From contig CAWUHX010000019.1 of assembly GCA_963922205.1 (NCBI GenBank), positions 982,278 to 1,046,277 on the forward strand: DNA of 64,000 nt, in the 5' to 3' direction. Origin of the DNA: Romanomermis culicivorax. Its lineage: Eukaryota > Nematoda > Enoplea > Mermithida > Mermithidae. How positions within the stretch are numbered: the stretch's first letter is position 1; every line of letters starts with the position of its first letter. The notes beneath the pieces are model-generated. The model had not been told where the DNA came from and did no database searches. It saw nothing but the letters and a program-made list of their open reading frames with translations. Below, piece after piece: positions 26,630 to 53,465 of the stretch. The translations under genes were made by a program, and so were the position numbers.

Positions 26630-27520
26630 AAACCTTTTTGATCAAACAATACCAAAAACTAACAGGATCACATATATCTTCAAATAATTCCTGTTTGTGT
26701 GGCAACAAATAATATTCTGTTGAGGCACTCGCATGATCAATTTCAACGTTTAAAACTTTGTGTAACATCGAACTGGTGAGCAGTTAGTGACAAAGTGCTG
26801 ATTCAGGCTCATAGGTTTTCATAATCGTTACTAGATACCTGTAAATGATTTCTAAATACGCCATAAAGCTTGATTTTCGAAAAATGACAGAATTCTGCCA
26901 AAAATCAGGACATTGTGCCAGATTTAATGCCAAATCATTGCAAATAGTTGCCATACATCTCAGACCTCGGTGCTCTGTTACATGTATATTTAAAAAAACA
27001 TCACACCTATCATGACAGCAAAGTTTGTGTCGTATTTAAGAATACATTACAAAATTTTCTATTTTTAGCGGGGAAAATGTTCGGTAGTTTTTGTCGGAAA
27101 ACGACGATTTTCACTGGAAAATAAGCCGCCCACCTTGCTCACTATTTCTGGACCACACGGAACTGTGTCTCTAGTAGAAACGAAAGCGTGGAAAACGTGT
27201 ACAACGTCTGAAATGTAGAAAAATCTCACAGGTTTCAGTAGTATGCAGAGTGCAGAAGCACATATTTTGCATTGATTATATGTTCTACGGACAAAGAAGC
27301 ACATGGTATCCAAATAAATTTAAGGAATCTTTCGTCCTCTCTCTCTATCAAGTAGCTTTATGGTTTGAATAATCATTGAAAAAATATATTTGCGACAGTG
27401 AAACTATATAATGCACACGCACTAATCACTTTTAGCACTTTTTCACATCAGATTTAGTCCCCAACAACAATCTTATTTTTTGAATGCAACGTGTATGGAA
27501 CGCAACATTGTTTTCGATTG
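26630..27520. other. No gene recognised
   Basis: Short frames on both strands show no domain or confirmed splice structure. Nothing further can be supported. Confidence 0.4.
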
Positions 27521-27524
27521 TGTC

Positions 27525-28110
27525 ACAACTTGGCGCCCGTCTGACGTTGCCGCCTTGTCTCACTTTGACGTCCAAGCCATACATGTAATTGGGGTAAGTG
27601 CTAGGAGAACCCCCCCCCCAGGAATCGTCGACCATATGGCTAGCCATTGGGCGACTGCGCCCCCCAGGATTTTCCAATCCAATGGCTAGCCATATGGTAG
27701 CCGTAGGGACCTCGATACTTTTGGTCGGAAAAATACTGAAAAATGTCAATTTTTTGATGGAAAATGTCAATTTTTGAACAAAAAATGGTAAAAAATGTGA
27801 ATTTTCTTGGCGCTTTGCGCCATGAATACATTTTTCGGTCTTTTTAAAAAAAATTACAATTTTTTGAACTATTTTTCGCATTTTTTTCCTTGAGAGACCC
27901 CTTCCCCCAAAATTTTGGTAATTACTGACCCCCGGCCCCAAAAAAGTCGCCCACCCACCCCCAGACCTCGGGGCCCCGTTACGTGCATGGTCCAAGCTGT
28001 GTTTTACCTTGACGCCCGTCTTACTTTGGTGTCTGTCTCATTTTGGCGCCCGTCTCACTTTAGCGTCTGTCTCACTTTGGCGCCCTTCTAACTTTGGCAC
28101 CTAGTATGTG
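27525..28110. repeat. Short tandem array (GCGCCCGTCTCACTTT), split by D3
   Basis: Units of about 18-20 bp based on GGCGCCCGTCTCACTTTGG lie at 27527-27570 (two) and 28003-28105 (about five). Copy D3 occupies the gap and duplicates 8 bp at the junction, so one array was split. Confidence 0.7.
27578..27989 (+). mobile_element. Family D MITE, copy D3
   Basis: Starts CATACATGTAATTGGGG and ends CCGTTACGTGCATG. A perfect 8-bp duplication GTCCAAGC flanks it (27570-27577 and 27990-27997). It contains CATATGGCTAGCCATTGGGC and its inverted partner, the TTGGCGCTTTGCGCCA hairpin, and the CCCC..AAAATTTTGG segment. The 187-codon minus frame across it is element sequence, not a gene. Confidence 0.88.
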
Positions 28111-29998: not shown

Positions 29999-30400
29999 AT
30001 TTTGTTAATCCTTTTTCTTTATTTTCTGTATAACATTTCTTCACTGTTTCCCTTTCATTCTCCCCTCTGTTTCAGTTTCTTCCTTTTTATTCTCATCATT
30101 TTGAGTCACAATTCTATGTCGTACTGCTTTTCTGTTTTATTTTAATATTGCGTTGTTCCTGTTTGTTTCTCCATTTTTGTTTCCATACGTTTCTTGTCCA
30201 TTTCATTTTATACACCGTTTCCCTTATTATCTTATACTCGTATTCAGTTCTCATTTCTTTTTCCATTTGTCTGTTTTTATATTCTTTTTTCCTTTCCGCT
30301 TCTCTATTCTTTTCTTGTACTTTTGTTTTGTTCGATTTGTTTTACCTTTTGATTTTATTTTACTCGCTCATTTTTCACTTTCTTTCACTTTTTCACGCAT
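29999..30400. repeat. Polypyrimidine tract (about 400 nt)
   Basis: The plus strand is strongly T/C biased with few purines. The overlapping Phe/Leu/Ser-rich frames of 93 and 207 codons are artefacts of this composition. Confidence 0.65.
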
Positions 30401-30623
30401 GGTCCCCACCGAAATGTTTCAGGTGTTAAAAAATGCAAAAAAAAGTAAAATGGTGAACCTTTGGTTTTTGTTTTCTTCAGGAAAAAGTCAAGTCAGAAAT
30501 GCCAATTTTACAGCAAATCAAGTTAAAAAAAACGTGTGCCCCCCAACAAAAATTCCTTGCTACAGGCCTCGTGCACCCTACCTCGTTTCAGTACCCAAAC
30601 TCAGAAATTTTCTTTGTATGAGT

Positions 30624-31840
30624 CAGTGTTTTTTTAGCGGCACACCCATTAGCAGTGCCGCTAATGGCAGTTTGACTCCATTAGCGCAAAAAAATTTAGT
30701 AGCGCACAGTAGTTTATTTCTTTTTACAATGGTGAATGGTGATCAAGTTATTAGTGATTTTATTAAGCATTATTGAGAAATGTGTTATTGTAAACTTATG
30801 TTTTGACAGCGTTCTTTAAAACGTACCTAACTATATTCACAGGGCCGTAACCGAGCAAAAAAATTTTCCGGCGCCTAGCACCGGGAAAATTTTCAGGTTT
30901 TTACATTATAAAAGACAGTAAAATGAATCTTCATAACAATGAAAATAAATCGGAATGAAACTAATGCATCGTAATACCTTTTTATCCCTGCGCGCAGCGC
31001 CAGGAAAATTTTCGGATTTTTGTGTTCCAAATTGCTGGAAAATGTATGTTCCCAACAATTATTCTTGGATAGAAGCTCTAAATTTACAGTCTTGTAATGA
31101 TGTTTTTATCGTCTTTCAATCGCAAATTGGGAAGGTTGACGTTTCAAAACGTTGGAAAACTCCAAACGAACCGAGAGAATAAAATTCTGAGAAGTGATGA
31201 AAAATCACTATTATCAGCAAATTATTGAATCTTGACTAAATTAGTAAAAAAGAGATGAAGTAATTCAATTGATAGAAATTGATGAAGGTTAATCAGTAAG
31301 TGGATGTAGATATGGTAACGGCCGCGCCTGGTAGAAAGAAATGACTATTATACTCATGACCGGCGGAAAATTTTGAGGATTTGACCTGAAATTCACCAAA
31401 ATGAATCTTTTCGCTTTTGAAGTGAAAAAAAAATTTCTTGTGAAAAAATGCCCAAAATTTTTCCCTCATTTCGAAATTTTGTTCCCTAAAAGATCCCATT
31501 GAGGGGAAAAACGGTGCTCTAAACGAGACGAGAGAAAAATTGTAAAGATTGACGGAAAATCTCATCTATCGGCAAAATGTTTTCGTGTAACTAATAATGA
31601 AAAAGAGATGAGGCACAATTCAGTTGATTGAAACTGCTAAATGTTAAGTAGTAAGCGGAAGTAGATATGCTAATGGCCATGTCGGATAGAAAACGTTTTG
31701 ATATTTTTCTCTGTGAGAGACTCGAAATCGACATATGACAAAGTCCCAACGGCCTTGTATATTCATCATTGTAAATTCTGAAGTAAAAATTCGGTCATTA
31801 GCGCGACCCATGTTTTGTTAGCGCCGCGCTAAAAATAGTG
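30624..31840. mobile_element. hAT-like element G
   Basis: Starts CAGTGTTTTTTTAGCGGC and ends GCGCTAAAAATAGTG. A perfect 8-bp duplication GTATGAGT flanks it (30616-30623 and 31841-31848). The ends carry repeated CATTAGCGC/GCTAATGG words. Two related GC-rich hairpins next to GGGAAAATTTT lie at 30867 and 30987. No transposase is evident. Confidence 0.85.
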
Positions 31841-35486: not shown

Positions 35487-35656
35487 GTAAAATACGAATG
35501 CTTGAAAATTGTATCTTTTAGAGGAATTTCTTATTCAAAACGTGCGTTATCGTATAATTTTGTTTTTTACCTGCATTAAAAATCGAATTCTAATAACTTT
35601 TTTTGTGGGTAATATAAAAATAGCCTGTCTGAGATAACTCGCGATTTCACTTGCAG

Positions 35657-38600
35657 GACTTTTCAATTGCTTTAACAATTGCAATCGATCAGTGGCGCCC
35701 AATTCTACCTTCTCCACTCCCGATCTCCTCCAGGACTCCATCCCCAAGAAAACTTCCTCCAACAAACGAGTGACGTTCGCTCGTCCAGATTGCCATCTTC
35801 CCGCCAAAAAGCGGGCTTTAATAAACGATGATGGAACGCCGACTCTGCCGCCGAAGCCTCCCACGCCAGTCGCCGCTTCCCCTAAAGTTCCCATTTTCAA
35901 CGAGTCCTCGAAAGAACAATTGTTCGAAGCGATGAAAAATTTTACCGACGATTTATTCATTAAACAAAAAAGCGAAAAAAATCGTAGAACAAACTTTTCA
36001 GCCAAGAGGAATGGAATTTCGGGCGTTAAAATCGATGAGTCGGGCGCTGAGTCGTTTCAAAATGAAAAAAATAAAGAGGATTTGAAGTCAAAACGCAAGA
36101 AGATGAAACATCACCGTTCCGTTTCTCCGAAAATAGCCAAAACTATAGTCAAAAAGTCAGTCACTGTGCAATGGAAACATAATTTAGACAAGAAAATAAA
36201 AAAAGTACGATAAATAATTTGCGTTGATTTGATTTTTATTTAAAGACACTTTCCTCTTATAGCAACTTCTGCAAAAACACATGGAGAACGCTAAGCCGTA
36301 CATAGAAAAAAGATGCCAAGAAGTGTTACGTAAGATGCTGATTCGGGATCAAAGCGCTCAGGGTGTGGTACACCCAATATGCGACGAAAAATACGTTGAA
36401 AGAGTGAAAGCGGAAATGTCCAGAACTTGGTCGATATTTGTCCCGTTGCAAGAACTTTGTTCGGAAATGGATCATGAATGGCTTTGTAACTTGACTGCTA
36501 AAATTACGAAATCTATGAGGCAGAGGAAAGCCGTGGAAGTGAGATTTCGCCTGCTTGCAATTTTTCAATTTAGAATTCAATTCGAAATTTAAAATTCAAA
36601 CATTTTTTTTGTCAAGATTGTTCCTTAAAATTTTACATCACGTTACTTGACTCATCACATTCTCACCAATGCCAGATAGTAATTTCTAATAGATATTTCA
36701 TATGATTTTAATTTTTACATAAAAAGTCATCGAAAAGGTCATTTTGAAAAGACATATTTTTATTTTCTAAAAAGTGAATTAAAATTTTACATCCATTAGA
36801 GCCTTAAATTGTTCAAGAATAGAGGATAAAATGGTTTTAATATTCTCTGAATTCATTAGGCTATTCGCAATTTTGAAAGCATCAAATCTTTTCCTAGTAT
36901 CATAATTTTACAGTTTGAATCGGTGATGTTAATTTTCTGTCTTATTCCCTGCAGCAGAATATTTTCAACGACTTTATCGTAGAATACGATATGGATAATG
37001 TTGAACCGCGTTTCGCCTTTTCAAAGCGTAAACCATTCCGATCTTTTACTGTTGTATACGAAGGCGAAAATAAAAAGAAGTACATAATAGTTTCTTTCAG
37101 CATGATGAAAAAAGAGATTCGTTAACTAATTTCGTCTTATCGGGGAATAATTCGATTTCTTTTTTCCAGGATTGCAGAAGTTTGTCCTAAAGATTCGAAT
37201 ACTCCCGATTATGATGGCATTTTCGACCCGTCAGTTTACCGTGAGAAGGCGAACCGCTTTGATCGGTTAGTAAACTCAGTGAGTTCGTAAATTTGCGATT
37301 ATTTTTAATGCATGAGATTTTATTCCCATACTTTTTACAGTTTCGATTGTCTATTGATGATAAATTAGTCTATTGCTTTAATGTACGTCATTTATTTCTT
37401 TATTGCGTGGATTCGGCTTATGGCGACATCCACAATACCATACGTGATGTAAGTGTGCTGCTTTACGACTACACAGTCTAGGTTTTGAGCGAGTTTTCGT
37501 GAATTTAGAATTTTCGCGTCGTATGACTATATTTTAATCGAAATTTAACTCTGGATGTTGTACATGGTTTTAGCTGTTATCAAAAATTCTAATTTCAGTT
37601 GATTTTCTATATCGACAATAATCATAACTTCATTTCGGATTTTGATAAGATTTAAGACTAATTCAACTTTTATATTACCATATTTTTTGTTGCTTCGTGG
37701 AAATCTTCAGCCTAAATTTGACCAAAAGTACACAGATATGTTCAATTTGATTTTAATTAGTTAACGAAATTATTTTTTTGATATCGAACTCCAGCTCTAT
37801 TCCTACCAAGTGCACGAGCTCCCACCTCATTTACCGACTCCTAACGCTTTAGTCGCCGAGTTGATCGGTTTGTTTCGAAAACGGGGCAGCCCACAGGAAG
37901 TCGTGATGCCGCGCCATTTCAAAGACCCGTACAGAATATTTCATTCACGCGAATACTTGATGGGTAAGAAACTTTATTTCAAAAATCCTCGTTTTTAATT
38001 TTTAAAAATGTTATTGACTTATTCTCCAAGAATTGAAACGCAAAGAAGAAGGAACAGAATTGAACGACGATCCAGAAAACGTGCAGGCGGTGAAAAATCT
38101 TCAAACTGTGCCTTGCAGTCACGATGAATCGGATTGGCCTGTCTATACGCCGATGCAGTCAAGAGAGGTATATACATACAATATTCTTTTCTTGAGCCAC
38201 AAATTGGATTTCCGTTCTTCGATCATAATTCTAATCTTCAGGACTTTTTGTGAGTCAAAATAGCTTTACTTAATGTTCGCATAATTTACCGGGAAAGTTA
38301 ACTTGGCGTGATCTGCATGTAAATTTTTTCTCCTAAATCTTCAAAAACCGTAGCGTACTTTGTAAAAGATTCAGACAACGATTTTTAGTATGAAAGATTA
38401 ATAGAGAACGGAGTTTATGAACGTCATAAAATTACAAAAAAATAAAAGGAGTTTTCTTATATAGATTTTCGTTGACGTTTTTCCATATTTAAATGTCGTT
38501 TTTGGTATTCTCACTGCACTGGTGTCTAGTTAGAGCTCGAACCCTCTGTTAATTATGTTTAGATTGCAAGTTTTTTGTGCGAATGCTATAAGAACCGTAC

Positions 38601-41589: not shown

Positions 41590-42600
41590 AGATAAACTTG
41601 CATAGTTTTCTGCGAATAATCAATATTTTACACTTTTGAAGCATATCTTCAAACTAGGTCGATTAAAAACTACTTTTATGTTAGAACCTCGAATTTCGCA
41701 ACTATTAATCCATAAAACTTTCACCGTCTTCAGATTCGAACTTGCAGCTATGTTTTACAACACAAGAATGAATACTCCAAAGATATATAGTCGTTTCCCC
41801 TCATTTTTATTTCGATGATTCAATTTTTTCGTGCTCTTACTATTTGGCGAAATTTTTTGTTTTTTCTTCTCCATTTTAGGTCGATTCGCACGTATACGCG
41901 GTCTTTTTTTATTTTTTTCTTGAATTTTCGGGTTGTTTCTTACGATTTTTAGCATTGAATTCAAGTCGCCTTGTACAGTAATTGAATCTATAAAACAATA
42001 TCGATGTTTGCTCATTCCACAAAAAAGTATCGTCGTCTACCGGTTCGTTCGTAAAAGAAGTTAAATTTATCTATATGATTACAATTATATTCTTTATTTC
42101 GCTTAGAATTTCGTTCTTTTTTCTACGGAAAGTTTAGGGCGTTTTTACGCGACCGATGCATTTGGCGATTGTACTTCATTTCGTTTAGAATTCGCCGTTT
42201 TTTCTTTTCATGTCGCACCGAATTTTTTCAAGCATCGATTTTTGAAATGTTCGGATTTTTGTATTTTGCGTAGCTTGTAATAAAGTATTTCGTCAAAATT
42301 TTAGTGTTCAAATTTGCGTAGAGTACCGCAATTCTTTTTTTGCCAAAATCAGGTATTTGGGTGTTTGAGATTCCTGTGGTTAGTGTGTACTTGTGGCTAA
42401 CGTGCTAGCCATGTAGGAAAAAATGAATATTTTCATGGATTTTCAGAATTAAAACGATTACTGCTGGACGGTGGCCAGTCGTGTCCCCAATACAGCGAGG
42501 TCTCAGAACAGCGAATAGTAAAAAGTTAATGCATTAGAATGAACGCGCACATCATTTTTATTATAAATATGCAAATTAGGTATGTTAAAATCGTTTTTGC
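41590..42600. other. Downstream flank of the host gene
   Basis: AT-rich sequence including the presumed 3' untranslated region. Short frames (for example 41755-42015 minus) are Lys-rich translations of AT-rich DNA. No further gene is supported. Confidence 0.4.
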
Positions 42601-42913
42601 TAGTTGAGATAGCCTATTTTGATTGTGCAACGGGTGGCCGATTGGGGGTCAAAAGCGCAGTCAAATGTTTCTTCACCTCGCCAAAATTTCTGTAATCGCA
42701 ATCACTGTGATGCCCAATCATTGGATTTTTCAAAATTGTATCATTGCAAACGATAATTGTTGAATATAATTCATTATCTTCCTTTCCACGAGTTTTCAAA
42801 ATTTTTTCGCATTCCAAACAAAGCCAATATTCGTTGAGTTCACCAGTGGTTCTCAAAACTTGTTGCGATTTTTTACGAAACTGGTAAAGTTGATTTGAAT
42901 TTAAAGGATTTGC

Positions 42914-42917
42914 ATAC
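42914..42917. repeat. Target-site duplication, left (ATAC)
   Basis: The 4 bp before the 5' LTR match the 4 bp after the 3' LTR at 52190-52193. Four to six base pairs is normal for Ty3/gypsy-type integration. Confidence 0.8.
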
Positions 42918-43800
42918 TGTAACGTACCTGCTAAAGCAGTACTGTAAATATGTAGCATACTGTATGTAATAGACATTTATTAGATATTATTTTATTTTTC
43001 ACATTTTATGTCTCAAGGATGTCTGGGATTCACACCCAAACATTCCTACAAAATTACGTGAAGTACTTTATTTTGATCCGTTCACACCCCGGTAGCCCAA
43101 TTAAGATGCCCTAATTAATTTGCACAAACGGCAGCTGTTCCCCTAGAACCCACACTAAACTACACATTCCACAGCTACCGTAATCCCCAGTAAAAATCGT
43201 AAACAACACCTGCACACAGTAAAATATGTAGAAGCCCCGCCGTACAGTAGTCTCAAGTGTAACAGTAGCGGCGGCCCCATAAAACATGTGTATACAGAGA
43301 AACCGATACAGGAAGCATGCACAGAAGCACAGAGGTGTGGCCAAGCCCACCGTAGAAAGCAAGTGAAGCACAGAAAGCATACGGTACCAGAAAAGCGTTA
43401 GAGAGGCGTAACTAAGGAAGCATAAAAAGCGTAGCCGGAAACGACGATTGGCGGAAGAAGATGGACAGAAGCTCGACCTCCCGCAGCGTCCAGGGAGTGG
43501 CCAAAATCGCCGTATAAAAGAAGAAGCAAAGCGTGATTTTGATCATTATATTCTGATTCTTATTCTTGTGTTTTTCCGCGCTCGCCCCGTCTTTATACAT
43601 TTGCAAGCGGCCGACTATTCGAAAGCATTTAAACCGAGGCCCCCATCCGTCTTTATTCGAAGCGCGTTTTATTTGTCGACGTTCAAGCGACCGTCGAATT
43701 ACCCGTTGTTTGTTGTAACCGTTCGCCCTGCCCCGTATTTGCCCCGCCGTATCGACCGATTGGTCCAAGTAAAGTACCTCACAGAAATCTGGTCGTTACA
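42918..43800 (+). repeat. 5' LTR (883 bp)
   Basis: TGTAAC...GTTACA ends; about ten differences from the 3' LTR, several of them clustered at 43626-43660 (versus 52026-52049), with a net 2-bp length difference. It drives transcription of the element. The 89- and 118-codon minus frames inside it are not genes. Confidence 0.93.
43513..43520 (+). promoter_or_regulatory. TATA box in 5' LTR
   Basis: TATAAAAG within CGCCGTATAAAAGAAG, the only good TATA match in the LTR; the same octamer is at 51900-51907 in the 3' LTR. Transcription would start roughly 25-30 nt downstream, about 43545. Confidence 0.55.
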
Positions 43801-43805
43801 TATTT

Positions 43806-43823
43806 TGGTGACCGTACCGTTAC
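43806..43823 (+). other. Candidate primer-binding site
   Basis: TGGTGACCGTACCGTTAC starts 5 nt after the 5' LTR, with the TGG that pairs with the tRNA CCA end. The tRNA identity was not determined. Confidence 0.45.
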
Positions 43824-44042
43824 GTTAACCAGTGGAACTCCCTGCCCCCAGTTAGGTGTACTCTTATCCGGGCGTTTAGAAGCATTAGTAATACAGTACT
43901 AATCATTTCCTACAGTAAGACGGTATTCGCATTAAGCAAACTGGAAACCCCCTCCAACGAAGCATTAAGCGATACATTTAAACGAATACAGCGTGAAGCA
44001 AAAATTGAAGCATTTAAGCAGAAATCCCATCGTAAACCAAGA

Positions 44043-47000
44043 ATGACCCACCAAACGCAAGATCATTTAGGAGAAATCGTTAGAGAACAGATAAACGATT
44101 TATTTTCAGAACATTTTCGTACCCTACGCACACAATTGAATCAGAATACAGTAAACCCTACCCTAATAGACGATCTAAGAACAGCAAACATTCGTAATAA
44201 CATGGCAAACAATTTCTACGCGAAACCTACAGTATTCACGGGCGGCGTGACCCAACATTTTGGTGAATGGAACAAAAGATTAGAACAATTCATGGCACTC
44301 CAAGGCATGAAAGATACAGACGTACAGTTAAAGTTGGCATGTTTAGAAATTCATTTAGGAGGAGCCGCGTTGGCAAAATTCAAAAGTTTAGCAAATTCCG
44401 AAAACCCTCCCCACACATACGAGCAGTATAAAGTCGCATTACAGACATTTTTCCCAAACAATAGAGATAATGAGCTACATCAACAATTCTTACGCGAAAG
44501 AAAACAAAAGCGATCAGAAACAGTAACGGAATTCTTATTTGATCTAGAACATCTCGCAACCCTCGCCTACCCTAACTTTAACACAGACGCACGAGAAATG
44601 ATCATAAAACCCCTCTTTGTAGAAGGCATGCAAAACGAAATCAGGGAAGCAATTAAGTATAGAAGGTTCGCAACTCTAAAAGAAATGTCAGACGAAGCAG
44701 CTTACATTGAACAGCAAATTCTTAGAAATGAGTTAAAGTCTAACGCCCTTCCCTTCATACCCCCAAAACCCGAACCCATCTTTTCCCTAACCAAAAATAC
44801 AGACCAACAGGATCTTTTGCATCAGTTAGAACAACAAGTAAAAGATTTACAGTTGCAGATCAAACAAAAACCTCAACCCCCACAACAAAGTAGCTACAAC
44901 AATTTCAGTAACAATACTTTCAGCAGGAATAATGCTTACAGGAACAATACCACCCCTAGGCAACCCACATGCTTCCAGTGTGGACAAATCGGACACGTAG
45001 CTCGTAATTGTAAATCAGTAGGCACCCGAAAATCATGTGCAATCTGTTTCCGTAATAATCACAGTACACGTGATTGTAAAAGCCCATGCATCCACTGCTC
45101 CCAAACAGGACATAGATCAGATAACTGCCCTTCAAAACCCCACTCCAATTTTCAATGTTTTATATGCAAGCAGAGAGGTCATACAAGCAGGTATTGCCCA
45201 AATCAGCAAAGTCGTAATATTCAAAATTGCATTGAGTACAGGCAACCCCAACCCCTCATGGACATTGACGACCCCGCATTTTACTCAAAATTACCCGCCA
45301 TAACTAACGGCCCTCAGACTACTTTAGGAACTATCATGCCCAACACCCACCGCCGCAGTGACGAATACGTCCTTGATCTGGACGTACCCGATTGGTGCGC
45401 CATGTCACCACCCCCCACGCCTGAAGCCGAAAAAATCGAAAAATCGCCGCCCACCATCCCCGTAGGCTACAAGATCCCCCGAAAGCAAGACACAACGCCG
45501 CCCACCGCCCCCGAAACCCCGTCGAAAACAGGTCGCAACTTGTTATCCCTCCTCCATGGCCTGACCCCTGCACCCTACCAATTTCGCCCCCGCCAAACAT
45601 TGCTACCGACCCCCACAAGTAAGCAAGTCCAAACCCCATCCCATAACTCAACTTCTAAAGTTTTACAGACCGTTCAGATTTCAAACCGGCCACCCCCCCA
45701 GCCCAAAATCGCAAAACGACAACACCAAAAAGCGCCACGCCAAATCGAACAGAGCGAAAAAACACAGTACCCCGCCGCTTCCAATAAAACACTACATTGG
45801 CCATTGTATTGTATTTTTCTTTGTATAATAATCCCCACATCGTGTAGTGCCCAATTTCAGATGTGTGGAACTTCATTGAGCGGTCACTCAGTCAGCATAC
45901 CAAAACTTGTATCATGCATGCCCCCTTCCACAGTAGACAAACCCGTACAAACATTCGGAAAAATCTATATCCCCTCCACTAAGCCCCACATTACAGACGC
46001 ATACAAATGCAGTGTTCGCAAACGCAAAATTTGTACTAATACAGGATTTTTTGGATCAAAAGGTATTGTCTTCGACCAAACCGAAATGCAAAATCTAACC
46101 CCACATGTTTGTAAGGCAATCGTTATAGACAAAGAACACAACGGTCAAAAATTGTACGAAACCCAACCAGGATTTTGGTCAACAAATAACTCCTTAAGCG
46201 TAGAATACACATGGTGTTGTACAGACCATTGTACCTCAGTCACTAACGTCATCATAGAAATAGGACAAATAGCATCTTGGAATGGAAAATCTATGACAGG
46301 TACATTAGGCGACCTAGGGTCATGCAAACCGACATCAGGTCATTGTGTCACAGCCGACGGATCCATTATCTGGAATGAAACAGCATTTGAAAACTTATGC
46401 CCTTTCGAATACAAAAATACACATCCCATCAAACTCACGCAAACACACATGATAATAGAAGAACTACAAGGTGCATTCTCGGTTAAAAATACAGTTTTTT
46501 CGAACCCCAATTGCCCAGAAATCCAAGACAGCATTCTAACCGAACAAGGCATTATCGTACAATTAGACAAAAGCACCCCACATCGTAATGCATTTTTAAC
46601 CCCAAAAACCAACGAAACTCATACTACACTATACGATTTTGATGATTTTGAACCCATCAATGCAAAACTAAACTATCTAGCAGACAAAATACAGGAATTC
46701 GAAATTCAAAATTTCAAAAATGTATGGAATGAATTATGCAGACAGGCACAACGTCACCTTGATCTCGTATGGCAAATCTTGCGTCTTGATGCAACCCTTG
46801 GAGCGCGTGCATTCCTACAGCGAACCGACATCATAGCAGAATTCACAGGAGAAGCCCTCACAGTCTGGCCCTGCAAGCAAGTAAATGCATCTAAAATCTT
46901 TTACAACCATAAAATCAACCAAACATGCTACAAACTTTTGCCCATTCTCGTAGGAACTGAACTCATGTTTTCAAATCCAGGAGGCAACGATTTGACCCCT

Positions 47001-47147
47001 TTTTCGCAAACCGTTGACTGCCATCACATGCATGTAGCCCTTTACAAACAGAATAATACATGGGTCAGTGAAACAGGATCCCCACATGTCACAAACTTAC
47101 CCTTAGAAATCGTCTGGAACCAAAATTTTTCCCTCTTTCCATTTTAA
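44043..47147 (+). CDS. gag-env: ORF1: Gag fused to Env-like ectodomain
   Basis: 1034 codons from the first ATG after the leader. Residues 1-240 are a retrotransposon Gag capsid region (GGAALAKFKSL, RERKQKRSETVTEFLFDLE). A short coiled coil (LLHQLEQQVKDLQLQI) follows, then four CCHC zinc knuckles: C310-C313-H318-C323, C332-C335-H340-C345, C349-C352-H357-C362 and C372-C375-H380-C385. A Pro-rich linker (about 430-585) leads to a hydrophobic signal peptide at 586-603 (LYCIFLCIII, ending SCSA). The remainder has about 16 cysteines and at least seven N-glycosylation sequons, so it looks like a secreted viral-type glycoprotein ectodomain. It most resembles arthropod mononega-like (chuvirus-type) glycoproteins, a tentative view. 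There is no stop between Gag and Env. The frame ends at TAA before any C-terminal membrane anchor; that anchor is encoded in ORF2. Confidence 0.85.
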   Translation: MTHQTQDHLGEIVREQINDLFSEHFRTLRTQLNQNTVNPTLIDDLRTANIRNNMANNFYAKPTVFTGGVTQHFGEWNKRLEQFMALQGMKDTDVQLKLACLEIHLGGAALAKFKSLANSENPPHTYEQYKVALQTFFPNNRDNELHQQFLRERKQKRSETVTEFLFDLEHLATLAYPNFNTDAREMIIKPLFVEGMQNEIREAIKYRRFATLKEMSDEAAYIEQQILRNELKSNALPFIPPKPEPIFSLTKNTDQQDLLHQLEQQVKDLQLQIKQKPQPPQQSSYNNFSNNTFSRNNAYRNNTTPRQPTCFQCGQIGHVARNCKSVGTRKSCAICFRNNHSTRDCKSPCIHCSQTGHRSDNCPSKPHSNFQCFICKQRGHTSRYCPNQQSRNIQNCIEYRQPQPLMDIDDPAFYSKLPAITNGPQTTLGTIMPNTHRRSDEYVLDLDVPDWCAMSPPPTPEAEKIEKSPPTIPVGYKIPRKQDTTPPTAPETPSKTGRNLLSLLHGLTPAPYQFRPRQTLLPTPTSKQVQTPSHNSTSKVLQTVQISNRPPPQPKIAKRQHQKAPRQIEQSEKTQYPAASNKTLHWPLYCIFLCIIIPTSCSAQFQMCGTSLSGHSVSIPKLVSCMPPSTVDKPVQTFGKIYIPSTKPHITDAYKCSVRKRKICTNTGFFGSKGIVFDQTEMQNLTPHVCKAIVIDKEHNGQKLYETQPGFWSTNNSLSVEYTWCCTDHCTSVTNVIIEIGQIASWNGKSMTGTLGDLGSCKPTSGHCVTADGSIIWNETAFENLCPFEYKNTHPIKLTQTHMIIEELQGAFSVKNTVFSNPNCPEIQDSILTEQGIIVQLDKSTPHRNAFLTPKTNETHTTLYDFDDFEPINAKLNYLADKIQEFEIQNFKNVWNELCRQAQRHLDLVWQILRLDATLGARAFLQRTDIIAEFTGEALTVWPCKQVNASKIFYNHKINQTCYKLLPILVGTELMFSNPGGNDLTPFSQTVDCHHMHVALYKQNNTWVSETGSPHVTNLPLEIVWNQNFSLFPF
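45798..47147 (+). other. env: Env-like domain inside ORF1 (signal peptide plus ectodomain)
   Basis: Starts with a signal peptide at ORF1 residues 586-603 and continues to the stop. Cysteines include a CC pair in WCCTDHC; sequons include WNET, NNTW and INQT. It should be exposed on the lumenal or outer side of membranes and would mediate entry if functional. How it would be made separately from Gag is unknown: a spliced RNA, signal-peptidase cleavage of the polyprotein, or no expression. A CCAATTTCAG acceptor-like site lies just before an in-frame ATG at 45861. Confidence 0.65.
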
Positions 47148-50100
47148 TACACCCGCCATTTTTCATGATCAACTTGCAACTATTTCAACCAACTTACTCT
47201 TTTTGAAACAATACATTTACAAAACTCACACACTCGAAAACATTGTCCAAAAACTCGTCAATTACACCGCCCAAATGTCTCTCAATTCCGATACAGTTTA
47301 CAACATGATCTCAGGCACTGGTCAAGCACTCGGAAATACACTCTCTGGCGCCGGTCAAGGCATAGAACATGTAATAACCGGTACCACCCAAAGTCTCACA
47401 GACGGATTAAACAATTTACTCAAAGGACCCCTGCAAATCATTATAAATCTAGCCGTTATTACTGTAGTTATTGCAGGCGTCTTTTATTCGTTTCTCGTTC
47501 TTCGAAAATACTTTAACTCTCCAAAGCATCATGCCACAAACGAACATGCATACGAAATACCATCAAACAACAGACATTTACATGAGACCATACCCCCATC
47601 ATTCGGCCATGCTCTCTTAGAATTAGCTAATCGTCGTGGGGCACAAACACAGCAGAAATACGTCCTTGTCGATATCGATACCCCCCGAACTCCTGCAATC
47701 GAACTCATTAATCAAATTCAGCAATCTGCATCAAATAAGCCACCCCAAAACGTACCTGAGAAACATACCCCTCATATTCCAATCACACTTAACGGCAAAT
47801 TAATGACAAAAGGCATGATTGACACTGGTGCAGTTTACTCACTCATTGATTCCCGAGTCGCGCAACTTTTACAGTTAGACATGAAACCCCCGCTAGTCCA
47901 AGCAAAAGCAGCAAATAATCTTCCGATTCACTTTGTAGGAACCACTTTTGTCACAGTGACAGCCCAAACAATCCAGGAAACAATCATGGTCCATGTCCAA
48001 AAAGATTGCACAGCAGACATCCTTCTAGGCAAAAACTTTCTCAGTCGATTTTCGGAATACACTATCAACAATCAAAAATCACAGGTCAAATTTGGCAATG
48101 TTATACTACCTTGTGATGGCCTAGAATATAGCCCTCTTTCAACTCGTGGTGGAACTTATCTAGATGAAAAATTAGAATTACCACCCCGTACAGTAACCGA
48201 ATTCACTGTCCCCTTGCCCAAATCCTACTTACAGGTCAAACAGCTTGAATTCACCCCAAAACCCAAACAGAATCCCAAAGTCCATTTCGCAGCTTGTATC
48301 TCAGAAAACCAAAACAGTCGCATACGTGTGTCCGTCCTAAACACACAAGAAACAGCTCAAATTCTTTACCCTGGAACATGCATTGGTACAGTCTCATGTT
48401 ACATCCCAAAACAAAATGCTCCCGCTAATCTAACCCCTTCAACGCAAAACCAGCCCAACCGTTTTGATACATTCACATGGTTAAAAGAAAACGTTAATTT
48501 AACCTCCAGTGACCTGACAGAAACAGAAAAAATGCAACTCCTACGCGCCCTATCGAAGTACCCTACATTATATGCTAAATCCAAAATGGATGTAGGTAGA
48601 ACCACCCTTGTTTCACATACAATTGACACCAATGGCTCCCAACCCGTACGTAGACAACTTTATCGGACTTCCCCAAAAGAAAAGCAAATCATACATGCAG
48701 AAGTTGAGCAACTCGCAGCAGCAGGTGTCATAAGCCAAAGCAACTCTCCATGGTGTACCAACACAGTTTTAGTTCCCAAAAAAGACGGAGGCCATCGTTT
48801 ATGCATTGATTTTAGAGGCCTCAACAAAGTCACCAAAAAAGATACCTACCCCTTACCCCGGATAGACGAAATTCTAGACACCCTCCGTGGAATGAAATAT
48901 TTCACCTCCCTTGACCAATCCAATGCATACTATTCCATTCCCATAGCACAAGCGGACAGAGAAAAAACGGCCTTTAATTGCTCAGCTGGCCAGTATCAAT
49001 TCAATTACCTCCCTTTTGGACTCACCAATGCCCCAGCCACATTCCAAAGGTTAATGGATGTTATTCTTTCGGGTCTGCAATGGAACACATGCCTTGTGTA
49101 TCTCGACGATGTTTTGGTATTCGCAGACTCCCATGCCCAAATGCTGGAACGTTTAGACACTATTCTTGCCCGATTCTCACAAGCAGGCCTTAAGCTAAAC
49201 ATACAAAAATGCAAATTCTGCCAGCCCCAAGTCCAATACTTAGGCCACGTCATTTCTCAGCAAGGCATTTCACCAGATCCCCATAAGGTACAGGCAATCT
49301 ATGACATACCCACGCCCAAAAGCTCAAAAGAAGTTAAGTCATTCCTTGGCCTACCCTCATATTATCGCAGATTCATCCCAAATTGCTCTCAAGTTTCTAG
49401 CCCACTCACATCGCTACTCAAAAAGAACTCAGAATTTTCCTGGGGCCCTGAACAGCAAAATGCATTCACTAAGCTAAAAGAATTACTCATTCATGCCCCA
49501 ATACTACAGCATCCCGATTTCACAAAACCGTTTATCCTGCAAACTGACGCCTCAAAACTCGGCATCGGCGCCATTCTCAGTCAGCTAGATAGTAAAGGTC
49601 AGGATCGCCCCATTGCTTTTGGGAGCCGCACATTGAAACCCGCAGAACGCAACTACCTGATAACTGAGTTGGAAACCCTTGCAGTAGTCGAATTTGTCAA
49701 GTATTTCCGCCCTTATCTTTTCCAGCAACATGTTATTGTACACACTGACCACACAGCAGTTCAGGCAGTCTTACAAAAGGAAAACCCGTCCCCTCGCATT
49801 GCCCGTTGGGGATTAGCTCTCTCTGGCATTCAGCTAGACATTCGACCTAAGAAAGGCACTGCTAACCGCAATGCAGATGCAGTTTCTCGATTCCCCTCAC
49901 AGACAGCAAAGCAATCCTTTGATATTGAGCAATTAGAAACCCGCCCCGAAATATCAACTATCAATTCAGTTTTGGAAGCCGAAGCAACTGAACAAGAAGA
50001 GCAACAGAAAAACTTTGCCGAACTCCAACGCACTGATCCAACTGTCAAAAGTATTTTAGCAAAAATCGCCCAAAAACACCCCCTTACCCTTATCAAATTC

Positions 50101-51273
50101 GCAGTACATCAAAACATTCTCTTCCGTATAGTCGACAAACAGGCAAAACTATACATTCCCAAGTCCCAAGTCCAGCATCTCATCGCCTCACATCATGACA
50201 GCAAGTTCACAGGTCATTTTGCGGCCCGGAAAACCCTACACTTGCTCAGACAGAAATATTTTTGGCCCCAAATGAGCCGTGATATCAAACGTTACTGCAA
50301 AACTTGTCACCCATGCCAGACACAGAAAGCCCTCCGACACAAAGTGCATGCAAACTTGGTACCAATTCAGCCGACTGGCCCATTTGATCGAGTTGGTGTT
50401 GATTGCATGGGACCGTTACCCCTCACTGAAGACGGCAACCGATTCATTGTCGTTTTCATCGATTATTTCACAAAGTATGTAGAGGCATTCCCAACCCCTG
50501 ACATCACTGCAGCCACTATTGCCAAGCTATTCGTAACCAAAATTGTTTGTCGTCATGGGTCCCCAAAAATCATCCATTGTGATCGTGGCACCGATTTTGT
50601 ATCCGACCTCTTCTCACGGATCACCAGTTTATGCAACACTCAGAAAATTCACACTACCCCATATCATCCCATTGCCAATGGAGAAGTTGAGCGTTGCAAC
50701 CAAACCCTAGCCACCCGTATCCGCATGTACATCAATTCAAATCACACTGATTGGGATACTTATCTGCCCTATGCCGTTTTTTCGATCAACATCCATAAAA
50801 ATGATAGCACATCATATCCCCCATTTGAATTACTCCACGGTAGGCAAGCTAATCTGCCGTCAGATGCAGCTTTAAATTTTCTCCCCACGTCCTACATGGT
50901 TGATTTAGATGATTACGCCCTTCGTGTAAAATCGCATTTCACAGAAGCACTCTCAACCGTGCAGAAAAGTTTGCAAAAAGCCCAAGCCCGCTATACCCGT
51001 CAGTATAACAAACATGCTCAGAACATACATTACAAGGCAGGTGATCTTATTCTTTATAAAAATCATTCGTGTAAACAAGGGTTGACTCCCAAATTCCTCC
51101 CTCGCCAAAACGGTCCCTATACAGTTACGAATTTCATGTACCCCAACGTTACACTCAAACACCCCCATAAGAATCTTACATTTACGGTGCATGTCAACGA
51201 GACAACCCCTTTCTACCCTCGGAAAGCAGCTAACGAATCTACCCCCACCCCTCCTCAACCTCGAAAGCCTTGA
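47107..51273 (+). CDS. pol: ORF2: Env-like membrane anchor plus Pol (PR-RT-RNaseH-IN)
   Basis: The frame opens at 47107, overlapping ORF1 by 41 nt in the +1 frame, and has no ATG near its start, so it is probably reached from ORF1. Numbering from 47203: residues 1-75 are an amphipathic Gly/Thr-rich stem (HTLENIVQKLVNY; repeated G-Q-x-L/I-x-N/H); 77-103 a transmembrane helix (IIINLAVITVVIAGVFYSFL). D207-T-G-A is the aspartic protease site. RT has KKDGGHRLCIDFRGLN at about 526 and YLDD at 633-636. RNase H has FILQTDAS (D782) and HTDH. Integrase has H-H ... C-x2-C from 997, D1067, D1127 and E1163 (D,D-35-E spacing), and a C-terminal GPY at 1304. All catalytic residues are present. No chromodomain was seen. 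Confidence 0.92.
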   Translation, partial: KSSGTKIFPSFHFNTPAIFHDQLATISTNLLFLKQYIYKTHTLENIVQKLVNYTAQMSLNSDTVYNMISGTGQALGNTLSGAGQGIEHVITGTTQSLTDGLNNLLKGPLQIIINLAVITVVIAGVFYSFLVLRKYFNSPKHHATNEHAYEIPSNNRHLHETIPPSFGHALLELANRRGAQTQQKYVLVDIDTPRTPAIELINQIQQSASNKPPQNVPEKHTPHIPITLNGKLMTKGMIDTGAVYSLIDSRVAQLLQLDMKPPLVQAKAANNLPIHFVGTTFVTVTAQTIQETIMVHVQKDCTADILLGKNFLSRFSEYTINNQKSQVKFGNVILPCDGLEYSPLSTRGGTYLDEKLELPPRTVTEFTVPLPKSYLQVKQLEFTPKPKQNPKVHFAACISENQNSRIRVSVLNTQETAQILYPGTCIGTVSCYIPKQNAPANLTPSTQNQPNRFDTFTWLKENVNLTSSDLTETEKMQLLRALSKYPTLYAKSKMDVGRTTLVSHTIDTNGSQPVRRQLYRTSPKEKQIIHAEVEQLAAAGVISQSNSPWCTNTVLVPKKDGGHRLCIDFRGLNKVTKKDTYPLPRIDEILDTLRGMKYFTSLDQSNAYYSIPIAQADREKTAFNCSAGQYQFNYLPFGLTNAPATFQRLMDVILSGLQWNTCLVYLDDVLVFADSHAQMLERLDTILARFSQAGLKLNIQKCKFCQPQVQYLGHVISQQGISPDPHKVQAIYDIPTPKSSKEVKSFLGLPSYYRRFIPNCSQVSSPLTSLLKKNSEFSWGPEQQNAFTKLKELLIHAPILQHPDFTKPFILQTDASKLGIGAILSQLDSKGQDRPIAFGSRTLKPAERNYLITELETLAVVEFVKYFRPYLFQQHVIVHTDHTAVQAVLQKENPSPRIARWGLALSGIQLDIRPKKGTANRNADAVSRFPSQTAKQSFDIEQLETRPEISTINSVLEAEATEQEEQQKNFAELQRTDPTVKSILAKIAQKHPLTLIKFAVHQNILFRIVDKQAKLYIPKSQVQHLIASHHDSKFTGHFAARKTLHLLRQKYFWPQMSRDIKRYCKTCHPCQTQKALRHKVHANLVPIQPTGPFDRVGVDCMGPLPLTEDGNRFIVVFIDYFTKYVEAFPTPDITAATIAKLFVTKIVCRHGSPKIIHCDRGTDFVSDLFSRITSLCNTQKIHTTPYHPIANGEVERCNQTLATRIRMYINSNHTDWDTYLPYAVFSINIHKNDSTSYPPFELLHGRQANLPSDAALNFLPTSYMVDLDDYALRVKSHFTEALSTVQKSLQKAQARYTRQYNKHAQNIHYKAGDLILYKNHSCKQGLTPKFLPRQNGPYTVTNFMYPNVTLKHPHKNLTFTVHVNETTPFYPRKAANESTPTPPQPRKP

Positions 51274-51291
51274 ACGAGGACGTTCAACTCC

Positions 51292-51304
51292 GGAAGGAGG
51301 GAAA
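51292..51304 (+). other. Polypurine tract
   Basis: GGAAGGAGGGAAA directly before the 3' LTR, the plus-strand primer site for reverse transcription. Confidence 0.8.
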
Positions 51305-52189
51305 TGTAACGTACCTGCTAAAGCAGTACTGTAAATATGTAGCATACTGTATGTAATAGACATTTATTAGATATTATTTTATTTTTCACATTTTATGTCT
51401 CAAGGATGTCTGGGATTCACACCCAAACATTCCTACAAAATTACGTGAAGTACTTTATTTTGATCCGTTCACACCCCGGTAGCCCAATTAAGATGCCCTA
51501 ATTAATTTGCACAAACGGCAGCTGTTCCCCTAGAACCCACACTAAACTACACATTCCACAGCTACCGTAATCCCCTGTGAAAATCGTAAACAACACCTGC
51601 ACACAGTAAAATATGTAGAAGCCCCGCCGTACAGTAGTCTCAAGTGTAACAGTAGCGGCGGCCCCATAAAACATGTGTATACAGAGAAACCGATACAGGA
51701 AGCATGCACAGAAGCACAGAGGTGTGGCCAAGCCCACCGTAGAAAGCAAGTGAAACACAGAAAGCATACGGTACCAGAAAAGCGTTAGAGAGGCGTAACT
51801 AAGTAAGCATAAAAAGCGTAGCCGGAAACGACGATTGGCGGAAGAAGATGGACAGAAGCTCGACCTCCCGCAGCGTCCAGGGAGTGGCCAAAATCGCCGT
51901 ATAAAAGAAGAAGCAAAGCGTGATTTTGATCATTATATTCTGATTCTTATTCTTGTGTTTTTCCGCGCTCGCCCCGTCTTTATACATTTGCAAGCGGCCG
52001 ACTATTCGAAAGCATTTAAACCGAGGCCCCCGTCTGTATTTTAATCCGAAGCGCGTTTTATTTGTCGACGTTCAAGCGACCGTCGAATTACCCGTTGTTT
52101 GTTGTAACCGTTCGCCCTGCCCCGTATTTGCCCCGCCGTATCGACCGATTGGTCCAAGTAAAGTACCTCACAGAAATCTGGTCGTTACA
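51305..52189 (+). repeat. 3' LTR (885 bp)
   Basis: Near-identical to the 5' LTR, with TATAAAAG at 51900-51907. It is followed by the ATAC duplication at 52190-52193. Confidence 0.93.
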
Positions 52190-52504
52190 ATACGAAAGAA
52201 TCTTGGTTTTCGGAGAATGATTTAACACGTAGCTCGCTTCACCGAAATTCATTGGAATGGTACAATTCGGAGCAAATTGACAAGAACGATTTTTCAAACG
52301 ATGGAACAACAGTCGAAAACGCTTTTGTGAACTTAGCACCATGTACAAGTTGCCTATTTTTGGAAGCACTCAAAAAGAGGCCAAAAAACGACGCTTTTTC
52401 TTAATGAGATGCATTTTTTAAGTGTTATTGTCGTGTAGTATGCCCATTCAGTTTTCGAAAAATTTATATCTATTTTTAGGTGAAATTTTGTCTGTAGCTA
52501 ACTG

Positions 52505-52610
52505 CTGCCTGCGCTTTTGACCCTTTAAACTATTGTGGAATAGTTTATCACTGACTGCGCTTTTGAACCCATTTGCATTGACTGCGCTTTTAAACCGACT
52601 GCGCTAATGA
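52505..52610. repeat. TGACTGCGCTTTTGA motif cluster
   Basis: Four copies of CTGCGCTTTTGAMCC or CTGCGCTAATGA lie within about 100 bp. One inverted copy, GGGTCAAAAGCGCAGTCAA, lies at 42648 at the far end of the split zinc-finger ORF. The pattern resembles the terminal arrays of elements F and G. Confidence 0.5.
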
Positions 52611-52614
52611 TTCC

Positions 52615-53465
52615 TACCCGGGTGGCCGACTGTACCGGATGGCCGAATTCAATTTGAGATATTTTATATGTAAGTCGAATCTTATACAAAACGTTTTCGC
52701 ACGAAACGTGAATAAAATGTTGCTAAATATAGGTTTCAATGCACAAGATATCATCAAAAAATGCAAGAGCGACACAAAAATATGCTAATTATCTACAGAA
52801 ATATGCCCTTCATAATTTTTTAATATTTTTGTAGCAAAAAACTATGAATAAGATATGTTAGAACTTGGCAAAAAATAGAATTTTCAAGAAAGATAGAACA
52901 GCAATAACGGAATTTCGTCTTTACTTGAGTAAATTATCTAAGGGTCGTACTCTGGAATGTCTCTGGCTCATTACTTTATTCACGCTAGCTTAGCACAATT
53001 GTTACATTCATAATACATGGTTTGCAAACCATCAAATCCTCGTTTAGTTTTATTCTTTTTGAAAAGTCAAAAATGATTGGAATTTGTGCGACTTCCGCAC
53101 TTGAGCAACGTCGAATTTCCATGAACTGTCAACTGATATTCTGCAGCCCCAAAATCATTTTCATTCATTTTTATAACAAATATACTCAACAAAGTGAACG
53201 GATACGAGGAGAAAAATTTCTTACAAAATCAAAAACTTTTGAATTCAAATAGGTATCCTTGTGTGCTTTTACTTATTAGCATATTTTTGCGTTGCTCTTG
53301 CATTTTTTGATGATATCTTGTACATTGAAACCCATATTTAGCAATATTTTATTCACATTTCGTTCAAAAACATTCTACATAAGGTTCGACTTATACATAT
53401 AAACTATTTCAAATTGAATTCCGCCACCCGTTACAGTCGGCCATGTTCTACAGTCGGCCAGGCGG
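52615..53465. mobile_element. Fold-back element Q with arms of about 180 bp
   Basis: The left arm (about 52615-52800) and right arm (about 53260-53455) are inverted copies at roughly 85% identity. Shared blocks include GAATTCAATTTGA, GTGAATAAAAT, TTGCTAAATAT and AAGATATCATCAAAAAATGC. GGCCGACTGTA words repeat at the ends. The spacer of about 460 bp has a 76-codon frame without recognisable domain. The target duplication and superfamily are undetermined. Confidence 0.7.

What the first reader, a model, noticed from the sequence alone, without database searches (positions are those of the whole stretch)
44043..51273. LTR retrotransposon with Env between Gag and Pol
Seen: ORF1 runs from Gag zinc knuckles into a signal peptide and a Cys-rich, sequon-rich ectodomain with no stop, and ORF2 begins with a stem and a transmembrane helix before the DTGA protease. 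Known: env-bearing Ty3/gypsy and BEL elements, and retroviruses, place env after pol. Inference: this lineage acquired or relocated a viral-type glycoprotein gene upstream of pol, so any membrane-anchored Env would share its chain with Pol or be cut from it by the protease.
Basis: partly seen in the sequence, partly recalled or inferred. Interest (0 to 1): 0.88.

Follow-up and report, generated by a model that had tools for sequence, protein, structure and literature searches.

The report
Retroelement with envelope inside its polyprotein
A high-copy virus-like jumping gene carries a herpes/rhabdovirus-type membrane-fusion protein in the middle of its one long protein, between the shell protein and the copying enzymes, where related elements carry it at the end.

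The parts
42914..42917 (+). target site duplication ATAC, left
42918..43800 (+). 5' LTR, 883 bp, TG..CA
43806..43813 (+). candidate primer binding site (TGGTGACC) just inside the 5' LTR; not matched to a tRNA here
   Evidence: read; PBS role recalled, not tested
44043..45785 (+). Gag: capsid-like region, CCHC knuckles (44970-45200), then a proline-rich linker
45786..45851 (+). internal hydrophobic signal ending ...SCSA
   Evidence: signal peptidase site inferred
45852..47144 (+). Env ectodomain, class III fusion protein
47107..47147 (+). overlap of ORF1 and ORF2 in which the frame breaks in this copy (shared by L022; absent from 38 of 40 copies, of which 31 are open throughout)
47146..47436 (+). 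Env stem (ORF2 frame)
47437..47493 (+). membrane helix (peak 19-residue window)
47707..51273 (+). Pol: aspartic protease (DTGA from 47821), RT (YLDDV 49099), RNase H, integrase
51292..51304 (+). polypurine tract
   Evidence: read; role recalled
51305..52189 (+). 3' LTR, 885 bp
52190..52193 (+). target site duplication ATAC, right

Best explanation
This is one copy of a recently active, high-copy Ty3/gypsy-type endogenous retrovirus-like family whose coding region is one Gag-Env-Pol frame. Env is a class III membrane-fusion glycoprotein of the type found in negative-strand RNA viruses and herpesvirus gB. Shown: gene order, one open frame in most copies examined, purifying selection on Env, and the same order in other families. 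Inferred: the chain is translated whole; an internal signal peptide threads the ectodomain into the ER after Gag has been made in the cytosol; signal peptidase frees the Env N-terminus; the membrane helix brings the chain back, so that protease, RT, RNase H and integrase are made on the cytosolic side and cut from the Env tail by the protease. Gag, Env and Pol would thus arise together at one membrane in fixed proportion, without splicing or frameshifting, giving enveloped particles or a cell-to-cell route. The window's own copy is interrupted inside Env and is probably defective.
Against: No transcript, protein or particle data. Splicing was not examined. The window's own copy and 8 others of 40 are interrupted, and P0005 ends inside its TM on a 10-kb contig, so it too is broken or expressed otherwise. 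9 of the 20 loci have at least one stop inside the matched stretches. The 40 copies and the 20 loci were found with Env-bearing queries, which favours well-kept Env. The ectodomain model is of medium confidence (pLDDT 68.9, pTM 0.53) and Foldseek TM-scores to post-fusion gB are low (0.29-0.37; 0.60 to a prefusion model).
Confidence: 0.7

Rival explanations
1. Gag and Env-Pol are made from different messages: full-length RNA gives Gag, and a spliced RNA joins a short leader to Env-Pol, so that the continuous frame is used only in part. Env would still share its chain with Pol.
For: The linker between knuckles and signal is the least constrained part (dN/dS 0.35); retroviral Env is usually made from a spliced RNA (general knowledge).
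Against: The linker frame stays open in most copies and across distant families (P0002, P0004, P0006; L081), which a spliced-out stretch need not do. Splicing itself was not tested.
Confidence: 0.2
2. The Env is real and used, but not for free virions: it works as a local fusogen or membrane-targeting domain that moves capsids between neighbouring host cells.
For: A short fusogen-like protein does this in MDG1-group elements of Drosophila (PMC11952523, abstract and passages).
Against: Nothing here separates the two; a complete ectodomain with signal and TM suits either.
Confidence: 0.25
3. The ORF1/ORF2 overlap is a programmed frameshift that sets how much membrane-anchored Env and Pol is made.
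For: The window's copy and L022 have the same two-ORF layout.
Against: 31 of 40 copies are in one frame across the junction; P0002, P0004, P0006 and P0007 run through the matching place in one frame.
Confidence: 0.02
4. A glycoprotein fragment is a chance passenger in one element, without function.
For: Viral glycoprotein sequences beside LTR elements are common in arthropod genomes (PMC10084718, abstract and passages).
Against: 40 copies at 99-100% over 600 bases of Env, Env dN/dS 0.051, same order in distant families.
Confidence: 0.01

Closest known systems
Ty3/gypsy elements with env (Metaviridae; errantiviruses such as gypsy)
   Same: LTRs, CCHC Gag, PR-RT-RH-IN order, RT closest to Ty3 among solved structures
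   Different: Their Env lies downstream of integrase (PMC7879559, whole text) and is of baculovirus origin in insect errantiviruses (PMC5962544, one passage); here Env is class III and lies between Gag and protease
Atlas virus of hookworm (Belpaoviridae)
   Same: One single polyprotein that includes a viral-type Env (PMC9094657, passages)
   Different: BEL/Pao polymerase, order Gag-Pol-Env, class II phlebovirus-like Env at the C-end
Anakin elements of mosquitoes (Pao) and Tas of Ascaris
   Same: LTR elements that carry a glycoprotein of chuvirus type (Anakin, PMC7642597, passages) or potentially of herpesvirus type (Tas, PMC5962544; PMC7642597 assigns the sources of Tas and Cer differently)
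   Different: BEL/Pao-type elements; that paper describes the envelope-like proteins of Roo, Tas and Cer-7 as downstream of the polyprotein; the place in Anakin was not read here
Class III fusion proteins: herpes gB, rhabdo/nyami/chuvirus G
   Same: Fold and PF24664 profile of the ectodomain
   Different: Encoded as a separate gene in those viruses (general knowledge), not inside a reverse-transcribing polyprotein
Flavivirus polyprotein (works like, not a relative)
   Same: Capsid, then internal signal, lumenal envelope protein, then cytosolic enzymes from one chain (general knowledge)
   Different: No homology claimed; a comparison of inferred topology only

Membership tests
Ty3/gypsy (Metaviridae) | RT closest to Ty3-type RT | tested here: met
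   Ty3-G Gag-Pol E 4e-72, best of PDB sequences; no tree with other retroelement clades was made
Ty3/gypsy (Metaviridae) | Pol order PR-RT-RH-IN, CCHC Gag | tested here: met
Ty3/gypsy (Metaviridae) | LTRs with TG..CA ends and short target duplication | tested here: met
Ty3/gypsy (Metaviridae) | Env, where present, downstream of integrase | tested here: not met
   Env lies between Gag and protease; rule from PMC7879559
Monjiviricetes fusion glycoprotein (PF24664) / class III fusion proteins | Profile match above the curated cut-off | tested here: met
   67.3 bits against 27
Monjiviricetes fusion glycoprotein (PF24664) / class III fusion proteins | gB-like fold with long central helix | tested here: met
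   model of medium confidence
Monjiviricetes fusion glycoprotein (PF24664) / class III fusion proteins | Trimer and fusion activity | not testable with these tools
   needs the bench
BEL/Pao with Env (Atlas, Anakin, Tas) | BEL/Pao polymerase and Env at the C-end | tested here: not met
   RT is Ty3-like, no BEL-type Pfam match in Pol, Env internal
Errantivirus | Env of baculovirus F type after pol | tested here: not met
   Env matches class III PF24664 and lies before protease

The most novel reading that the evidence does not exclude
A whole, diversified lineage of enveloped reverse-transcribing viruses or elements makes a single Gag-Env-Pol precursor that spans the membrane twice, capsid and replication enzymes on one side and a class III fusogen on the other. 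It has kept that design while its polymerases diverged to about 37-57% identity, and it is, or was until recently, infectious or cell-to-cell mobile in its host.
Probability: 0.5. Interest if true: 0.9.

Novelty: new variant of a known kind. Interest (0 to 1): 0.83.

Why it matters
Gene order gag-pol-env is treated as a fixed feature of retroviruses and env-bearing LTR elements, and retroviral Env is usually made from its own message. A conserved gag-env-pol lineage under purifying selection shows another solution: one chain, probably threaded through the membrane like a flavivirus polyprotein. It makes direct questions testable: how proportions are set without frameshifting or splicing, how a protease acts when tethered behind a membrane anchor, and how often viral fusogens have turned retrotransposons into viruses.

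Tried and rejected
Programmed frameshift at the ORF overlap: rejected, because 31 of 40 copies have no break there or elsewhere in the stretch. Chance passenger: rejected by selection and conservation. Class I or II Env: not supported; the profile and the top fold matches seen are class III, which is no proof that other families are unrelated.

Searches without result: viral contigs and genome contigs with the Env alignment A3 (82 and 99 pattern matches, 0 confirmed by tblastn); PHROGs; Rfam and tRNA scans of the window; phmmer of the window Env stretch against PDB sequences (0; the A3 profile finds gB weakly, best E 1e-4). The fold of P0007 was poor (mean pLDDT 43.6) and was not used. Trees of RT and Env (11 rows each) had mostly weak forks and showed no supported conflict, but are too poorly resolved to say whether Env was captured once. 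The host was not identified: SL1 (RF00198) gave no match, but no control rang either, and the 22-base pattern search did not complete. Whether some Env loci in this genome lie after a BEL-type pol (open frames of 3014-3018 aa) did not complete, because the PF05380 search stayed busy. P0001 looks like Env behind a BEL-type integrase tail, but the DUF5641 match is below cut-off (E 0.015).

Literature: 10 searches, in a library of open-licence PMC papers only. Six phrases for an internal env gave 0 papers. As a control, 'gag-pol-env' or 'gag-env-pol' gave 121; with 0 for 'gag-env-pol', these hold 'gag-pol-env'. Repbase-type reports and most subscription journals were not searched. Also opened without bearing on the result: Troyka (PMC12440569, abstract and outline), Cer1 (PMC10309623, passages), insect ERVs (PMC12992720, terms not found).

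Full report
What is there. The element runs from 42918 to 52189. Its LTRs (883 and 885 bp, TG..CA) differ by 8 substitutions and one 2-nt gap as I count them, with ATAC on both flanks. A purine tract precedes the 3' LTR. ORF1 (43812-47147) and ORF2 (47107-51273) are the only stop-to-stop ORFs of 150 aa or more in 42500-53000. Searched in four pieces they give, in order: Retrotrans_gag and CCHC knuckles, PF24664 Monjiviricetes_fusion (E 9e-19, above the curated cut-off), aspartic protease, RT, RNase H, integrase zinc domain and integrase core. The RT is closest to Ty3 among solved structures (E 4e-72). A hydrophobic signal precedes it and a strong membrane helix follows in ORF2.

Is the order real and kept? 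The window lies in a 359-Mb assembly. One DNA search with 600 bases of Env returned 40 places at 99-100% identity, all that were scored out of 988 candidates. I took 3.6 kb around each of the 40 (window 44500-48100 and its counterparts). In 31 of 40 the whole stretch, from Gag through the knuckles, Env and TM into the protease, is one open frame. The nine others are the window's copy, L022 with the same layout, and seven interrupted elsewhere. Of 20 of the other copies taken further, the 3' piece is open to the end of integrase in 17 and the 5' Gag piece is open in 19; 15 of the 20 are open in all three pieces (together). So the family is built as one Gag-Env-Pol frame, and the two-ORF appearance is a defect of this copy. 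The sample favours copies close to the window in Env.

Is Env used? Among the 31 single-frame copies pairwise dN/dS is 0.106 for the Gag part, 0.348 for the linker, 0.051 for the ectodomain, 0.121 for TM and tail, and 0.037 for the protease part; all 16 Env cysteines are kept in 31 of 31. For 17 copies with an open 3' piece it is 0.015 in RT, 0.026 in RNase H, 0.019 in integrase and 0.044 over the whole piece. Choosing open copies removes only nonsense and frameshift changes. Env is held less tightly than RT and integrase, but about as tightly as the 3' pol piece as a whole, and more tightly than Gag.

Is it wider than this family? Three protein searches gave seven relatives: 1 of 4009, 2 of 2668 and 5 of 7995 scored candidates passed, the last five including the query P0002. 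P0002, P0004 and P0006 carry a zinc-knuckle Gag side, Env and protease in one chain. Their Gag calls are weak by Pfam: in P0002 the knuckle is read by eye and Retrotrans_gag is E 0.0017; in P0004 the knuckle carries a C2H2 label and the capsid is recognised by eye from P0005; in P0006 the knuckle is just under cut-off. P0005 has Gag then Env and ends in the TM. P0003 and P0007 have Env then protease. P0001 is the exception: a weak BEL-type integrase tail, then Env, the usual place. In the same genome, the 20 loci scored with P0004 all have an Env match directly upstream of protease-RT on the same strand, with open frames of 1949-2703 aa; 9 of the 20 have at least one stop inside the matched stretches, and the query holds both parts, so it favours such loci. 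In L081-L083 Gag capsid, Env, protease, RT, RNase H and integrase follow in order: one open frame in L081, one frame with a stop in L083, Gag in another frame in L082. Of the ten loci held, seven are open in one frame from the Env part held to integrase. Between distinct families RTs are 37-57% identical (79-91% among the closest sister groups) and Envs 34-46% without P0001 (61% and 85% for the two closest pairs of families or proteins), so the arrangement is old. A P0001 search lists 61 Env places in this genome, all that were scored; where Pol lies at most of those was not tested.

How it most likely works. Because nothing separates Gag, Env and Pol, the simplest product is one chain. Its hydropathy predicts Gag in the cytosol, an internal signal, a lumenal glycosylated ectodomain (9-10 sequons), a return through the TM, and Pol in the cytosol. 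Signal peptidase and the element's protease would then give the parts. A separate start for Env is unlikely: a nearby Met exists in only 21 of 31 copies. This topology is inferred; no expression data were available. A spliced Env-Pol message is the main rival.

Against what is known. The ICTV profile of Metaviridae says Env, where present, is encoded downstream of integrase (PMC7879559, whole text). Atlas virus of hookworm has a single Gag-Pol-Env polyprotein with a class II Env in a BEL element (PMC9094657, passages), so an Env inside a retroelement polyprotein has a precedent, but at the end. Chuvirus glycoproteins are known in Pao elements (PMC7642597, passages); a later survey saw Gypsy fragments beside such glycoproteins but no clear capture by Gypsy (PMC10084718, abstract and passages). 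Tas is said to have taken an Env potentially from herpesviruses (PMC5962544, one passage). [quoted passage not shown] Six phrases for an internal env gave no paper. I found no description of the gag-env-pol order within the open-licence library searched.

Verdict. The finding is confirmed and strengthened: a conserved, selected, high-copy lineage of Ty3/gypsy-type elements with a class III fusion glycoprotein inside a single Gag-Env-Pol frame. Open points are the host, the origin of the arrangement, and whether particles form and infect.

Noticed in passing
47107-47147; L022: One other copy of 40 (L022, 97.4% identical to the window's copy over the stretch) has the same two-ORF layout at the same place; shared descent and two independent events were not told apart.
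   Followed up: partly
own genome, rows C94, C410, C85, C45: Env-bearing open frames of 3014-3018 aa match P0001 from residue 56-75 on, longer than the gag-env-pol frames; they may be BEL-type Gag-Pol-Env elements. The PF05380 search that would tell did not complete.
   Followed up: no
own genome: At least 61 PF24664-type Env places (all scored, of 3922 candidates) in one genome: an unusually rich load of class III Env retroelements.
   Followed up: partly
P0005 (1056 aa on a 10,076-base contig): A Gag-Env protein 85% identical in Env to P0004 that ends inside the membrane helix: a break like the window's at another place, or another way of expression.
   Followed up: no
35638-36213 +, 809-1744 +, 27432-28037 -, 30105-30776 +: The only other stop-to-stop ORFs of 180 aa or more in the window; not examined.
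   Followed up: no
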